A stretch of DNA of 64,000 nucleotides from an uncultured Bacteroidota bacterium. Lineage in GTDB: Bacteria; Bacteroidota; Bacteroidia; Flavobacteriales; Flavobacteriaceae. Shown here piece by piece: positions 29,523 through 64,000 of the stretch (its first letter is position 1; the number at the start of each line of letters is the position of its first letter). The notes beneath the pieces were generated by a model. That model was not told where the DNA came from, searched no databases, and saw only the letters and a program-made list of their open reading frames with translations. The stretch is taken from positions 1 through 64,000 of the forward strand of contig CAIWKX010000200.1 of assembly GCA_903913315.1 (NCBI GenBank), read 5' to 3'. The position numbers were made by a program, and so were the translations under genes.

Positions 29523-31028
29523 ATGGCCTCAAAAGAGTTAGAAGAAAATGAGCTTCTGAAAAAAATAAAAGAAATTTCAGATTACAAATATGCCCTTGAT
29601 GAAGCATCAATTATTGCAATTACCAATCAAAAAGGAATTATTACTCATGTCAATGATAATTTTTGTAAAATATCAAAATACAGTCGTGAAGAATTATTAG
29701 GTCAAGACCATCGGATTATAAATTCTGGCCATCATTCTAAAGATTTTATTAAAGAACTATGGGTCACTATAGCAAAAGGGAACGTTTGGAAGGGTGAATT
29801 AAGAAACAAAGCCAAAGACGGAACATCCTATTGGGTGGACACTACCATTGTACCTTTTTTAAATCAAGAAGGAAAACCTTATCAGTATGTCGCAATTAGA
29901 TCGGACATCACTGAAAGAAAAAAAGGAGACGAAGAATTATTAAAGAAAATCAAAGAAATATCGGACTACAAGTATGCCTTAGATGAAGCTTCAATTATTG
30001 CTATTACTAATCAAAAAGGAATTATAACCCATGTTAACGACAATTTTTGTGCCATATCAAAATATAGTCGTGAAGAACTTATTGGAGAAGATCATCGCAT
30101 CATTAACTCAGGTTTTCATCCTAAGGAATTCATAAAAGAGCTTTGGTCTACTATAGCAAAAGGCAAAGTTTGGAAAGGAGAATTGAGAAACAAAGCCAAA
30201 GATGGCACTTGGTATTGGGTAGACACTACCATTGTTCCTTTTTTAAATCAGGAAGGAAAACCTTATCAGTATGTTGCAATTAGATCGGACATCACTGAAA
30301 GAAAAAAAGGAGAAGAACTTATTAAGCATATGCTTACTACCACGGAGTATCAAAACAAACAATTGGTAGATTTTTGCAATATTGTTTCTCACAACTTAAG
30401 AGCTCCATTAGTAAATATATCTATGTTATTGAATTTTTTAGAAGAAAGTCAAGATGAAGACGATCGGTTAGAACTGCTAAACAGAATAAAACCAGTAGTT
30501 ACCCATTTAAACGAAATATTTAATGAATTAGTGGAGTCACTTCAAGTCAGACAAGATTCTGAAATTCAATCCATAAATATTGATTTAAAAGAGTGCATGG
30601 AGAAGATACTTATTAGTTATGATGCTCAAATACGTGCTTTTAATGCTACAATCGTAATGGATTTTAATGATGTACCCGTACTCTATTATCCTCCAAAATA
30701 TATTGACAGTATACTTACTAATTTGATAAGTAATGCACTTAAATATAAATCCCCCGATAGAAATTTAATAGTTGAAATTAAAACAATAAAAATAGACAAA
30801 CATATTATCTTATCTGTTAAAGACAACGGATTAGGTATAGATTTAGAACGTCATAAAGACAGTATATTCAAAATTCGAAAAGTTTTTCATGTGCATCCCG
30901 ATGCTAAAGGGTTTGGTCTATTTATGACAAAAACACAAGTTGATGCCATGGGAGGCGAAATATGGGTGGAAAGCACACCTGAAGTTGGAAGCACTTTTTT
31001 TATTAAATTTGAGAATAATAAATTATGA
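29523..31028 (+). CDS. Tandem-PAS sensor histidine kinase
   Basis: Two almost identical PAS/PAC units, then IVSHNLRAPLVN H-box, NLISNALKYKSPDR, GLGIDL, GFGLFMTK. Confidence 0.92.
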   Translation: MASKELEENELLKKIKEISDYKYALDEASIIAITNQKGIITHVNDNFCKISKYSREELLGQDHRIINSGHHSKDFIKELWVTIAKGNVWKGELRNKAKDGTSYWVDTTIVPFLNQEGKPYQYVAIRSDITERKKGDEELLKKIKEISDYKYALDEASIIAITNQKGIITHVNDNFCAISKYSREELIGEDHRIINSGFHPKEFIKELWSTIAKGKVWKGELRNKAKDGTWYWVDTTIVPFLNQEGKPYQYVAIRSDITERKKGEELIKHMLTTTEYQNKQLVDFCNIVSHNLRAPLVNISMLLNFLEESQDEDDRLELLNRIKPVVTHLNEIFNELVESLQVRQDSEIQSINIDLKECMEKILISYDAQIRAFNATIVMDFNDVPVLYYPPKYIDSILTNLISNALKYKSPDRNLIVEIKTIKIDKHIILSVKDNGLGIDLERHKDSIFKIRKVFHVHPDAKGFGLFMTKTQVDAMGGEIWVESTPEVGSTFFIKFENNKL

Positions 31029-59226: not shown

Positions 59227-59400
59227 AGTAATTATTTTTGGCAAAATTAGTTATTTTTAAAGTCGTTCAAACTTTTTTATAATAATAGTGTGATTATTAC
59301 TCGACTATAGACGAATTCTACTATTTTTACGTTATGTAATTTTGTCTATTCATTTTTGACTTTTCAAATAAATATATACATTTACCAAAATTCCGTTCCT

Positions 59401-61011
59401 ATGCGTAAATTACTTTTTATATTTTCTATACTATTTGCCATCACCTTTAGCTCGTGCCGTAAAGATTTTACCTTCGAACAAAGCACGGGTGGATTAGAAT
59501 TCTCTAAAAGTACCGTCTATTTAGACACCGTTTTTACCAATATTTCATCTAGTACGTACCGTTTAAAAGTATACAATCGAGGGAGTAAGGACATTGTAAT
59601 TCCTAAAATCCAATTGGGAAAAGGAATCAATTCTAAATACCGAATTATGGTAGACGGAATGACAGGCGATGCGGGCGCAATAGGAAAAAGTTATACCAAC
59701 GTGGAATTATTAGCCAAAGACAGTTTATACATCTTTATTGAAGTAACGGCCGATGTTGCTAGTGCCAACCCAACCGATTTTTTATATACCGACCAAATAC
59801 AATTCTCTAATGTTTCAGGCGCACCACAAACCGTAGATTTAGTAACTTTAATTCAAGATGCTATTTTCATTTATCCTGATAAATACTCATCTACAAGTTT
59901 TGAAAGCATCAATTTAGGAGTGGATAACAACGGAGCTCCAGTAACCATAAAAGGTAGTAATTTACTAGCTAATGACCCTGTAAACGGCAACGAACTCCAT
60001 TGGACAAAAGGTAAACCTTATGTTGTCTATGGATATGCACTCGTTCCAGACAATCAAACTTTGGTCGTTGATGCAGGCGCTAAAGTGTATTTTCATGCTA
60101 ATTCTGGATTAATTGTAGCCAAAAATGCGACTATCCAGGTCAACGGGGACTATCCTTCCGACCATAAACCGGAAAACCTAAGCAATGAAGTGATTTTCCA
60201 AGGAGACCGTCTAGAACCTGCTTTTTCAGATGTCCCAGGGCAATGGTTCGGTATCTTTATGCTGTCTCAAAATACAAACACAATTAATCACTTAACACTT
60301 AAAAATGCTACTGTCGGTATATATTGTGTTCCCTTAGATGCTATTAATAATTTCTATTCAACTAAATTAAATATTACTAACAGCCAGATTTACAATAACT
60401 CAAACTATGGATTATTCTCTCTAGGAGCTCAAATTACAGGCGAAAATGTAGCAATAAATAATTGCGGTCAATATTGTTTAGGGTGTACCTATGGTGGTAC
60501 TTATAATTTTACAAATAGCTCGTTTAATAACAATTGGAGTAGCTCCAAACAATTAGCAGTACTACTAAGTGATTATTTTGCAGATACTGCTACTTCAGGT
60601 ACTACGACCTATTATGCGAACAATGCAACGAATAGCTACCATTTTAATAATTGTATCATGTACGGATCCAATCAAGTCGAATTCTATATAGATAGAATCG
60701 GAACTCAGACTTTCACCTATTCAATTCAAAACAGCTTGATAAAATTCAATAACAGCCAACTGAATGATGCTGGTTTTTATGATTTTAATAATCCAACCGG
60801 ACCGTATGCTAACAGTTGTTATATATCAAAAAACAACATCCACTATACGCCTTCTTTCAAAAACCCTGACAAAAATCAATTATGGCCTACTGTCGATTTA
60901 AGTATAGCTCCTTCTTCAATGTCAGCTTTGTCTCCAACAGTGACTCTTGATATTCTAGGAAAAGACAGAACTTCAGATACCACCATTGGGGCCTACCAAT
61001 TCATGCCATAA
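59401..61011 (+). CDS. Lipoprotein with right-handed beta-helix-like repeats
   Basis: Lipobox FSSC; asparagine-rich parallel beta-helix pattern (NNSNYGLFSLGAQITGENVAINNCGQYCLGC). Confidence 0.75.
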   Translation: MRKLLFIFSILFAITFSSCRKDFTFEQSTGGLEFSKSTVYLDTVFTNISSSTYRLKVYNRGSKDIVIPKIQLGKGINSKYRIMVDGMTGDAGAIGKSYTNVELLAKDSLYIFIEVTADVASANPTDFLYTDQIQFSNVSGAPQTVDLVTLIQDAIFIYPDKYSSTSFESINLGVDNNGAPVTIKGSNLLANDPVNGNELHWTKGKPYVVYGYALVPDNQTLVVDAGAKVYFHANSGLIVAKNATIQVNGDYPSDHKPENLSNEVIFQGDRLEPAFSDVPGQWFGIFMLSQNTNTINHLTLKNATVGIYCVPLDAINNFYSTKLNITNSQIYNNSNYGLFSLGAQITGENVAINNCGQYCLGCTYGGTYNFTNSSFNNNWSSSKQLAVLLSDYFADTATSGTTTYYANNATNSYHFNNCIMYGSNQVEFYIDRIGTQTFTYSIQNSLIKFNNSQLNDAGFYDFNNPTGPYANSCYISKNNIHYTPSFKNPDKNQLWPTVDLSIAPSSMSALSPTVTLDILGKDRTSDTTIGAYQFMP

Positions 61012-62206: not shown

Positions 62207-62606
62207 GACAGCCAACTGACCACTGAAAACTGCCAACTGAAAACTGAAAACTGACAACTGACCACTGCCAACTGATCACTGACAACTGACCACTGACCAC
62301 TGCCAACTGAACACTGAAAACTGACCACTGACCACTATTCTCAAAGCCCTTTCCCTGAGGCTCTCGAAGGGACACCGCCAACTGACCACTGACAACTGAA
62401 AACTGAGAACTGACAACTGAAAACTGAGAACTGACAACTGAAAACTGAGAACTGAAAACTGACCACTGACCACTATTCGCAAAGCCCGTTCCCTCAGGTT
62501 CTCGAAGGGACACTGCCAACTGAACACTGCCAACTGATCACTGACCACTGAACACTGACAACTGAAAACTGAAAACTGACCACTGACCACTGACCACCGC
62601 CAACAG
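62207..62606. repeat. Composite array of degenerate 7-bp tandem repeats (ACTGNNN) with two 42-nt spacers
   Basis: Three blocks of about 17, 12 and 13 heptamers; spacers start at 62337 and 62475. Confidence 0.9.
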
Positions 62607-62624: not shown

Positions 62625-62642
62625 TATATGCAATTACATATA
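62625..62642. promoter_or_regulatory. Operator-like TATATG-CAATTA-CATATA, copy 1
   Basis: Inverted repeat TATATG-N6-CATATA. Confidence 0.7.
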
Positions 62643-62664: not shown

Positions 62665-62682
62665 TATATGCAATTACATATA
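62665..62682. promoter_or_regulatory. Operator-like TATATG-CAATTA-CATATA, copy 2
   Basis: Identical to copy 1, exactly 40 bp downstream. Confidence 0.75.
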
Positions 62683-62688
62683 ATTTTA

Positions 62689-62696
62689 TATATTTG
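62689..62696 (+). promoter_or_regulatory. Putative -7 box TATATTTG of the hip operon
   Basis: TAnnTTTG match lying between operators 2 and 3. Confidence 0.55.
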
Positions 62697-62704
62697 CATT
62701 AAAT

Positions 62705-62722
62705 TATATGCAAAAACATATA
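62705..62722. promoter_or_regulatory. Operator-like TATATG-CAAAAA-CATATA, copy 3
   Basis: Same arms, exactly 40 bp from copy 2. Confidence 0.72.
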
Positions 62723-62742: not shown

Positions 62743-62964
62743 ATGAAAACACTAGCAGCGTTTGTGAAGGAAAAAAGAAATGAAGTAAACCTCACACAGC
62801 AAGCATTTGCCGAACGTGCCGGAGTAGCACTTACCGTAATACGAAAAATTGAACAAGGCAAGGAAAACCTCAACCTTGAAAAAGCCAATCAGGTACTCAA
62901 AATGTTTGGTCACACTCTCGCACCGGTCAGCACAAAAGTGGTAGCTAAAAATGAAACCGAATGA
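62743..62964 (+). CDS. hipB: HipB-like HTH antitoxin/regulator
   Basis: Xre-type HTH: FVKEKRNEVNLTQQAFAERAGVALTVIRKIEQGKENLNLEKANQVLKMFGHTLAPV; internal Met start after the operators. Confidence 0.88.
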   Translation: MKTLAAFVKEKRNEVNLTQQAFAERAGVALTVIRKIEQGKENLNLEKANQVLKMFGHTLAPVSTKVVAKNETE

Positions 62965-63290
62965 GACAGGCCGCTATCTACTATAAAGACTTGCTAGCAG
63001 GAACACTAACAGAAACTGACGAAGGAGAATATACCTTCCTATACAACACAGAATACAGTGAAAAATACCCTAATCAGTTCTTAACCTTCTCCATGCCCGT
63101 CAGCGACAAACCCTATACAGACAAAAGACTATTCCCTTTTTTTGAAGGAGTAATACCCGAAGGTTGGCTGCTAGATATCGCATCTAAAAACTGGAAAATA
63201 AATCAAAATGACCGTATGGGTCTTCTTTTAGCATGTTGCCAAAATTGCATCGGTGCGGTAAGTGTTCAACCCATACCGCAAACAAAATAA
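62961..63290 (+). CDS. HipA N-terminal-subdomain protein (HipS-like)
   Basis: AAIYYKDLLAGTLTETDEGEYTFLYNTEYSEKYPNQFLTFSMPVSDKPYTDKRLFPFFEGVIPEGWLLDIASKNWKINQNDRMGLLLACCQNCIGAVSVQP; ATGA overlap with hipB. Confidence 0.85.
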   Translation: MRQAAIYYKDLLAGTLTETDEGEYTFLYNTEYSEKYPNQFLTFSMPVSDKPYTDKRLFPFFEGVIPEGWLLDIASKNWKINQNDRMGLLLACCQNCIGAVSVQPIPQTK

Positions 63291-63363
63291 ACGAGCCAAC
63301 AACCTAAAATAATTAATTTTTAGCGAGTCCCATATACCGCTTAAAAACAAATAGTAACTGCGT

Positions 63364-64000
63364 ATGAATAAATGTTTATATTGTTACAAACCCTTGAATG
63401 AAAATGAAAATGATTTTCACGAACACTGTAGCCTAGTATTTTTTGGTACCAAACAACCTCCTGTATTGGAACATACACTACATCAAATGGCAGATTTGGC
63501 AAAGAATATAGTCGAACGCAGCGTAGCCATTCCTGGTGTACAACCTAAATTATCACTTTCGCTAATAAAAGGTACCTTGAAAGACGGTCACAAGGGACGA
63601 TTAACAGTAGTCGGAACTTTAGGAGGAAACTACATCTTCAAACCTCCTTCCGAAATCTATCCAGAAATGCCCCAAAATGAGCACTTAACTATGCGAATGG
63701 CAGAAGCTTTCGGCTTACATACAGTCATGTCCAGTCTAATTCGCCTGCAATCGGGTGAACTGTCCTACATTACAAAACGCATCGACCGTACCGCAAAAAG
63801 AGAAAAAATCCACATGCTCGATATGTTTCAAATCACCGAAGCCATAGATAAATACAAAAGTTCCATGGAAAAAGTAGGTAAAGCACTAGAAGAACATTCA
63901 AGCAATACATTATTTGATAGCCTGTATTTCTTAGAACTAACTATTTTCTGTTTCCTGACCGGCAATAACGACATGCACCTCAAAAACTTTTCTATGATCA
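63364..64000 (+). CDS. HipA-type kinase core (HipT-like), 3'-truncated by the window edge
   Basis: VAIPGVQPKLSLSL loop, GNYIFKPP, ITKRIDR, FLTGNNDMHLKNFSMI catalytic motif; open to the last base. Confidence 0.88.
   Translation, partial: MNKCLYCYKPLNENENDFHEHCSLVFFGTKQPPVLEHTLHQMADLAKNIVERSVAIPGVQPKLSLSLIKGTLKDGHKGRLTVVGTLGGNYIFKPPSEIYPEMPQNEHLTMRMAEAFGLHTVMSSLIRLQSGELSYITKRIDRTAKREKIHMLDMFQITEAIDKYKSSMEKVGKALEEHSSNTLFDSLYFLELTIFCFLTGNNDMHLKNFSMI

What the first reader, a model, noticed from the sequence alone, without database searches (positions are those of the whole stretch)
62743..64000. Tripartite split HipA module (hipB-hipS-hipT) in a Bacteroidota background
An Xre/HipB-like gene overlaps (ATGA) a ~110-aa protein matching only the N-terminal subdomain of HipA. 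A separate ORF follows with the kinase core (GVQPK loop, NNDMHLKN catalytic motif). This is the order of the HipBST system described in enteropathogenic E. coli, where the split HipS acts as antitoxin for the HipT kinase that targets tryptophanyl-tRNA synthetase. Target and antitoxin roles here are unknown.
Basis: partly seen in the sequence, partly recalled or inferred. Interest (0 to 1): 0.65.

Follow-up and report, generated by a model that had tools for sequence, protein, structure and literature searches.

The report
Bacteroidota HipBST split-kinase toxin-antitoxin operon
Three neighbouring genes in a Flavobacterium-like bacterium encode a DNA-binding repressor, a small antitoxin and a protein kinase that probably stops the cell's own growth; the kind is known from E. 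coli and Legionella, but this branch has its own switch DNA, a likely zinc finger and no usual self-phosphorylation site.

Summary
hipB (62743-62964), hipS (62961-63290) and hipT (63364-64311, completed beyond the window) form a HipBST operon. HipS is a stand-alone HipA N-subdomain-1; HipT is a HipA_C kinase without it. The nearest solved structures are Legionella HipT (E 1e-44) and HipS; E. coli O127 HipT is much further away (1e-18). HipBST systems related to Legionella's were already reported from Bacteroidota in 2023.

New here: this locus belongs to a distinct Bacteroidota branch ("type 1"; 79 of 79 scorable loci are B-S-T). (i) It has an invariant HipT N-terminal CxxC...HxxC motif. (ii) The Gly-rich loop has Pro in 81/81 and Ala in 63/81 at the two autophosphorylation positions. 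(iii) HipS carries the E. coli-type Trp, unlike Legionella. (iv) TATATG-N6-CATATA sites recur upstream of hipB every 40 bp; two sibling types keep the palindrome geometry with other half-sites. In this genome an insertion separates hipS from hipT by 73 bp where relatives overlap. The operon sits in an accessory island that is empty in relatives. Toxicity, neutralisation and target were not tested.

The parts
62625..62642 (.). Operator-like palindrome O1, TATATGCAATTACATATA
   Evidence: 40-bp period conserved in relatives
62665..62682 (.). Operator-like palindrome O2, TATATGCAATTACATATA
62689..62696 (+). Candidate Bacteroidota -7 promoter element TATATTTG (TAnnTTTG), between O2 and O3
   Evidence: TAnnTTTG occurs at -16 or -15 from the last operator start 48 times in 79 loci
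62705..62722 (.). Operator-like palindrome O3, TATATGCAAAAACATATA, at the expected transcription start
62743..62964 (+). hipB: 73-aa HTH (Xre/HipB) protein, predicted autorepressor
62961..63290 (+). hipS: 109-aa stand-alone HipA N-subdomain-1 (Couple_hipA), predicted antitoxin, with invariant PEGW (W69)
63291..63363 (+). 73-bp hipS-hipT gap that arose by an insertion at the ancestral hipT start; relatives overlap by 8-14 nt
   Evidence: no strong second copy in the genome
63364..64000 (+). hipT, first 212 codons (full gene C200:63364-64311, 315 aa): HipA_C kinase toxin with N-terminal CxxC..HxxC, loop AIPGVQPK, catalytic NNDMHLKN
62213..62597 (.). Array of degenerate 7-bp repeats (ACTGAAA/ACTGACC type) upstream of the promoter; similar arrays downstream at C200:64338-64391 and 65155-65303; bordering feature, not known to be functional

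Best explanation
A HipBST-type type II toxin-antitoxin operon of a Bacteroidota-centred branch. [quoted passage not shown] HipS, the detached N-terminal lid of HipA, binds the N-lobe of HipT and blocks it by wedging Trp69 under the Gly-rich loop so that the loop cannot close on ATP (inferred from the E. coli structure; the residue is invariant here). HipB dimers bind three palindromes TATATG-N6-CATATA spaced 40 bp that bracket the -7 promoter element, alone or as a HipBST complex, and repress the operon according to the toxin:antitoxin ratio (operators shown by comparative sequence; binding inferred). In this branch the Gly-rich loop usually lacks both autophosphorylation serines, so control probably rests on HipS and HipB rather than on self-phosphorylation. 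The operon lies in an accessory island and probably serves island maintenance and/or defence (inferred).
For: Domain content and full gene lengths. Closest structures are HipT and HipS of HipBST systems (fold search ranks 1-11). B-S-T order in all scorable loci. Catalytic N202-D203-H205-K207-N208 and Mg-site D225 conserved in at least 97% of 81. HipS W69 and E67 conserved in at least 97% of 79, aligned with E. coli W65 (W65A abolishes neutralisation, PMC10627512). The Legionella HipT residues needed for HipS binding D133, R134, K157 and K201 (PMC9325769) align with D141, R142, K163 and K207 here. Operators: at least 2 sites in 79/79 loci, 150 pairs spaced 38-42 bp against 0 in shuffles, three phased sites in 63 loci; 3 of the 4 exact sites in the 3.36 Mb genome are here. 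Purifying selection. Three relatives lack the island at this site.
Against: No experiment on this branch. In E. coli HipT the Ala changes S57A and S59A abolish or nearly abolish toxicity (PMC10627512), and this HipT naturally has Ala and Pro at those positions, so toxicity is not assured; but Legionella S54A stays toxic (PMC10653801). In this particular genome hipT is uncoupled from hipS by an insertion, so the balance may be altered or hipT poorly translated. The structure model is only moderately confident, with weak loops (mean pLDDT 65.6).
Confidence: 0.88

Rival explanations
1. Same architecture, but the locus in this genome is decaying: the insertion that uncouples hipS and hipT makes hipT weakly expressed or silent, and hipBS persist as a repressor/antitoxin remnant.
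For: 73-bp gap here against an 8-14 nt overlap in nearly all other loci; insertion at the ancestral hipT start; the nearby prfH carries an in-frame TGA.
Against: All three frames are intact, hipT dN/dS 0.06-0.08 against near relatives, hipT keeps an ATG start; Tenacibaculum adriaticum has a similar 82-bp gap.
Confidence: 0.12
2. A HipA-like kinase module whose main role is signalling or regulation rather than growth arrest: without autophosphorylation serines HipT would act on a host substrate without being a classical toxin.
For: Pro in 81/81 and Ala in 63/81 at the autophosphorylation positions; E. coli AIS and SIA variants keep kinase activity but lose toxicity (PMC10627512).
Against: An antitoxin-type HipS with the Trp plug and phased autoregulatory operators is kept in the relatives; patchy distribution (51 of 200 genus genomes) and mobile-type context are typical of toxin-antitoxin modules; Legionella HipT S54A stays toxic (PMC10653801).
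Confidence: 0.1
3. The same toxin-antitoxin machinery used mainly for anti-phage defence rather than for island maintenance: HipT is released on infection and shuts down the cell.
For: The island also holds a Fic protein, an AbiEii toxin with its partner gene, RtcB and an HNH endonuclease gene.
Against: No trigger is known; only weak PADLOC matches; toxin-antitoxin genes cluster in islands for other reasons too.
Confidence: 0.2

Closest known systems
HipBST of Legionella pneumophila (lpg2368-70; PDB 8ezr, 7vkb)
   Same: Gene order, HipS and HipT sizes, best sequence and fold match, three evenly spaced upstream 18-nt palindromes with 6-nt arms and a 6-nt core.
   Different: Legionella HipT lacks the CxxC..HxxC motif and has loop SVQ with autophosphorylated Ser54; HipS has I65/M66 instead of Trp; operator TTACTG-N6-CAGTAA spaced 71-72 bp (read in L. 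adelaidensis). A separate Flavobacterium type (L113) is the true Legionella-like one: 330 bits against 156, with the same operator half-site.
HipBST of E. coli O127:H6 (PDB 7ab3-7ab5)
   Same: Gene order; HipS Trp that plugs the Gly-rich loop (W65, here W69).
   Different: HipT only 71 bits; S57-I-S59 loop against A-I-P here; TrpS target not transferable.
HipBA of E. coli K-12 / Shewanella oneidensis
   Same: HipA_C kinase fold and catalytic motifs; HTH partner.
   Different: HipA is one chain with N-subdomain-1 fused; HipB is the antitoxin; HipT-HipA match weak (E 1e-5 to 1e-3).
hipJS and hipIN modules (Gerdes 2021, PMC8262856)
   Same: Also pair a kinase core with a HipS-like putative antitoxin.
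   Different: Kinase gene first, no hipB; here hipB-hipS-hipT.

Membership tests
HipBST toxin-antitoxin family | Three genes in order hipB-hipS-hipT, co-directional | tested here: met
   same order in the scorable relatives
HipBST toxin-antitoxin family | HipS of about 100 aa equal to HipA N-subdomain-1 alone | tested here: met
   Couple_hipA 4.2e-24 over residues 5-102 of 109; HipS(Lp) 2.1e-14
HipBST toxin-antitoxin family | HipT kinase lacks N-subdomain-1 but keeps Gly-rich loop, catalytic Asp and Mg-site Asp | tested here: met
HipBST toxin-antitoxin family | HipS, not HipB, neutralises HipT; HipT is toxic | not testable with these tools
   needs expression assays
HipBST toxin-antitoxin family | HipB autoregulates from upstream operators | tested here: inconclusive
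   three phased palindromes conserved in relatives; binding not tested
HipBST, E. coli subclade | Ser at both autophosphorylation positions (SxS) or S/T variants | tested here: not met
   A55-I56-P57 here; 63/81 Ala, 81/81 Pro
HipBST, E. coli subclade | HipS Trp65 inserted at the Gly-rich loop | tested here: met
   residue present: W69, at least 97% of 79; its insertion into the site is inferred
HipBST, E. coli subclade | TrpS is the target | not testable with these tools
   needs TrpS co-expression or phosphoproteomics
HipBST, Legionella subclade | HipT loop S-V/I-Q and HipS I65/M66 | tested here: not met
   AIP loop and PEGW; Flavobacterium L109 and L111-L113 have instead SIQ and PEGI or PEGV
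HipBST, Legionella subclade | Operators TTACTG-N6-CAGTAA about 70 bp apart | tested here: not met
   TATATG-N6-CATATA at 40 bp
HipBA family | HipA single chain of about 440 aa with fused N-subdomain-1 | tested here: not met
   the genome has a separate full-length HipA-like gene at C24

The most novel reading that the evidence does not exclude
Bacteroidota hold a distinct HipBST branch in which HipT carries a zinc-binding N-terminal finger, has mostly given up Gly-loop autophosphorylation, and is controlled only by the HipS Trp plug and by HipB on a 40-bp-phased operator array, with a target different from TrpS.
Probability: 0.4. Interest if true: 0.5.

Novelty: new variant of a known kind. 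Interest (0 to 1): 0.36.

Why it matters
HipBST has been studied in two gammaproteobacterial groups that disagree on the role of the HipS Trp, on autophosphorylation and on the target. This branch combines the E. coli-type Trp with a kinase closer to Legionella's and usually has no phosphorylatable residue at either loop position, a natural experiment on whether autophosphorylation matters. The three operator types, which share a 6-6-6 palindrome geometry (40 bp spacing in two of them, about 70 in the third), give a directly testable HipB recognition code.

Tried and rejected
Phage origin of hipT: no match in the phage collection. A repeat-family origin of the 73-bp insert: no strong second copy in the genome, no strong hairpin. 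A fixed genomic neighbourhood: no flanking gene family is shared by more than about 10-12 of 81 loci. A first operator search used a 19-base pattern with the wrong core length and missed the sites; it was repeated with the right one. The L009 hipS frameshift (one base in a T run) was treated as a possible sequencing error in a MAG, not as biology. In one search three type-3 loci (L109, L110, L113) were printed under type 2 because of the sorting rule. The Legionella hipT gene itself was not fetched; the printed PDB alignments were enough.

Full report
What is there. The window is the first 64,000 bases of a 74,548-base contig. hipB starts most plausibly at ATG 62743 (73 aa), because the longer mechanical ORF start at 62668 lies inside an operator repeat. 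It overlaps hipS (62961-63290, 109 aa) by ATGA. hipT starts at 63364 and, followed beyond the window, ends at 64311 (315 aa). Pfam and NCBIfam give HTH_3 and couple_hipB (just under its cutoff) for hipB, only Couple_hipA for hipS, and HipA_C for hipT.

What it is related to. The best structural relatives are Legionella HipT (1e-44, 156 bits) and HipS (2e-14), then E. coli O127 HipT (1e-18, 71 bits), with full-length HipA at 1e-5 to 1e-3. The AlphaFold model (mean pLDDT 65.6, pTM 0.69) puts Legionella HipT first and E. coli HipT next in a PDB fold search. A scan of GTDB genomes returned 80 loci, nearly all from Bacteroidota with single Chlorobiota and Balneolota members, at 63-84% identity. All but one short contig (L043) have hipB and hipS directly upstream; L009 has a frameshifted hipS.

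Three types in Bacteroidota. Loci from the genus, the phylum and plasmids fall into three groups. Type 1 (this locus) has a CxxC..HxxC motif in HipT (C4, C7, H19, C22, each conserved in at least 97% of 81), loop [A/S/T]-[V/I]-P-GVQ and HipS PEGW. Type 2 (about 39-50% identity) keeps CxxC..HxxC and PEGW in the loci read, and has Thr before GVQ. Type 3 (37-43%) has C[P/L]ITY instead of the Cys motif, a loop ending in IQ (mostly SIQ) and HipS PEGI/PEGV. A type-3 HipT matches Legionella HipT with 330 bits, so type 3 is the true Legionella-like type. In a maximum-likelihood tree type 1 forms a group (97/80) that includes L096 as a long early branch. The E. coli and HipA rows are very long branches there, and their placement is not relied on.

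Autophosphorylation positions. At the position of E. coli Ser57, Legionella Ser54 and HipA Ser150, type 1 has Ala in 63, Ser in 14 and Thr in 4 of 81; at the position of E. coli Ser59 it has Pro in all 81. The window has A55-I56-P57. In E. coli the Ala changes S57A and S59A abolish or nearly abolish toxicity (PMC10627512); in Legionella S54A stays toxic (PMC10653801). The eLife survey of 48 HipT proteins already noted (S/T)xP and xxT loops; A-x-P as the majority state of a branch was not found in the papers read here. Ser53, two residues before, is conserved in 80 of 81; whether it is phosphorylated is unknown.

HipS. W69 of the PEGW motif aligns with E. coli W65, whose W65A change destroys neutralisation (PMC10627512). 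Legionella HipS lacks it. Of the Legionella HipT residues needed for HipS binding (PMC9325769), D133, R134, K157 and K201 align with D141, R142, K163 and K207 here; E144 and R154 do not (alignment counted by eye).

Operators. Upstream of hipB the window has TATATGCAATTACATATA at 62625 and 62665 and TATATGCAAAAACATATA at 62705. Scoring up to 260 bp upstream of hipB in 79 loci, every locus had at least two sites, 78 had two phased sites and 63 had three. 150 pairs lie 38-42 bp apart; shuffled sequences gave none. The Bacteroidota -7 element TAnnTTTG (consensus from general knowledge) lies 15-16 bp before the last operator in 48 cases, here at 62689-62696, so O3 would cover the transcription start and O2 the -33 region (inference). 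Type-2 loci have TATACC-N6-GGTATA at 40/41 bp and type-3 loci TTACTG-N6-CAGTAA at about 70 bp; such pairs were not found in every type-2 locus. The upstream region of Legionella adelaidensis shows the type-3 half-site at 71-72 bp, which fits the 18-nt, 53-bp-gap operators published for Legionella (PMC10653801). The 6-6-6 geometry is shared and the half-site changes with the HipB recognition helix (A[L/V]TVIRK, GLRFVR[D/E], GKTT[V/L]F). HipB binding to type 1 and type 2 sites is inferred.

This genome's peculiarities. Nearly all relatives overlap hipS and hipT by 8-14 nt; here an insertion at the ancestral hipT start leaves 73 bp between them. Coupled translation is therefore probably lost, although all frames are intact and under purifying selection (hipT dN/dS 0.06-0.08; hipS dS was saturated). 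The operon lies between a lipoprotein gene (59356-61011) and the contig end, in at least 13.5 kb of accessory DNA with Fic, an AbiEii toxin gene and its partner, RtcB, a broken prfH and an HNH gene. In three relatives the lipoprotein gene is followed directly, or after one small gene, by a ~1,220-aa gene that looks like purL, with no hipBST (purL named from memory of its sequence).

Frequency. HipT relatives occur in 51 of 200 sampled genomes of the genus and 48 of 297 of the phylum, including a conjugative plasmid. None was found in phage records.

Known or new. That Legionella-related HipBST is widespread in Bacteroidota was reported in 2023 (PMC10653801), so the module is a member of a known family. 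The type-1 features above (Cys/His motif, majority A-x-P loop, phased operator family and its covariation across types) were not found in the papers read. Searches of the held library found no paper with HipS, HipT and Bacteroides other than that one and no obvious HipT-zinc report. Toxicity, neutralisation, DNA binding, zinc binding and the target are all untested.

Noticed in passing
C200:70268-70969 (L002:10269-10970), beyond the window: prfH (release-factor homologue next to rtcB) carries an in-frame TGA directly before SSGAGGQ; nearly all of the other matching genus genomes have no stop inside, so it is a nonsense mutation or an assembly error here.
   Followed up: yes
window 62213-62597; C200:64338-64391 and 65155-65303: Arrays of degenerate 7-bp repeats (ACTGAAA/ACTGACC type) flank the hipBST operon on both sides; the exact motif searched for occurs otherwise only at C178 in this genome.
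   Followed up: partly
window 29562-30317: A 384-bp unit repeated twice in tandem (85% matches), apparently inside a coding region.
   Followed up: no
C200:66773-67871 (L002:6774-7872): Gene pair of a DUF6922 protein and an AbiEii nucleotidyltransferase toxin; the same pair stands directly upstream of hipBST in Flavobacterium sedimenticola (L008:2074-3172), on the other side than here.
   Followed up: partly
G000:C24:5125-6219: Second HipA-family gene in the genome, a full-length HipA-like kinase of about 417 aa, separate from this module.
   Followed up: partly
L096 (G158): HipB 76% and HipS 69% identical to the window's but HipT only 49%, with type-1 operators: a possible chimeric or early-branching module.
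   Followed up: no
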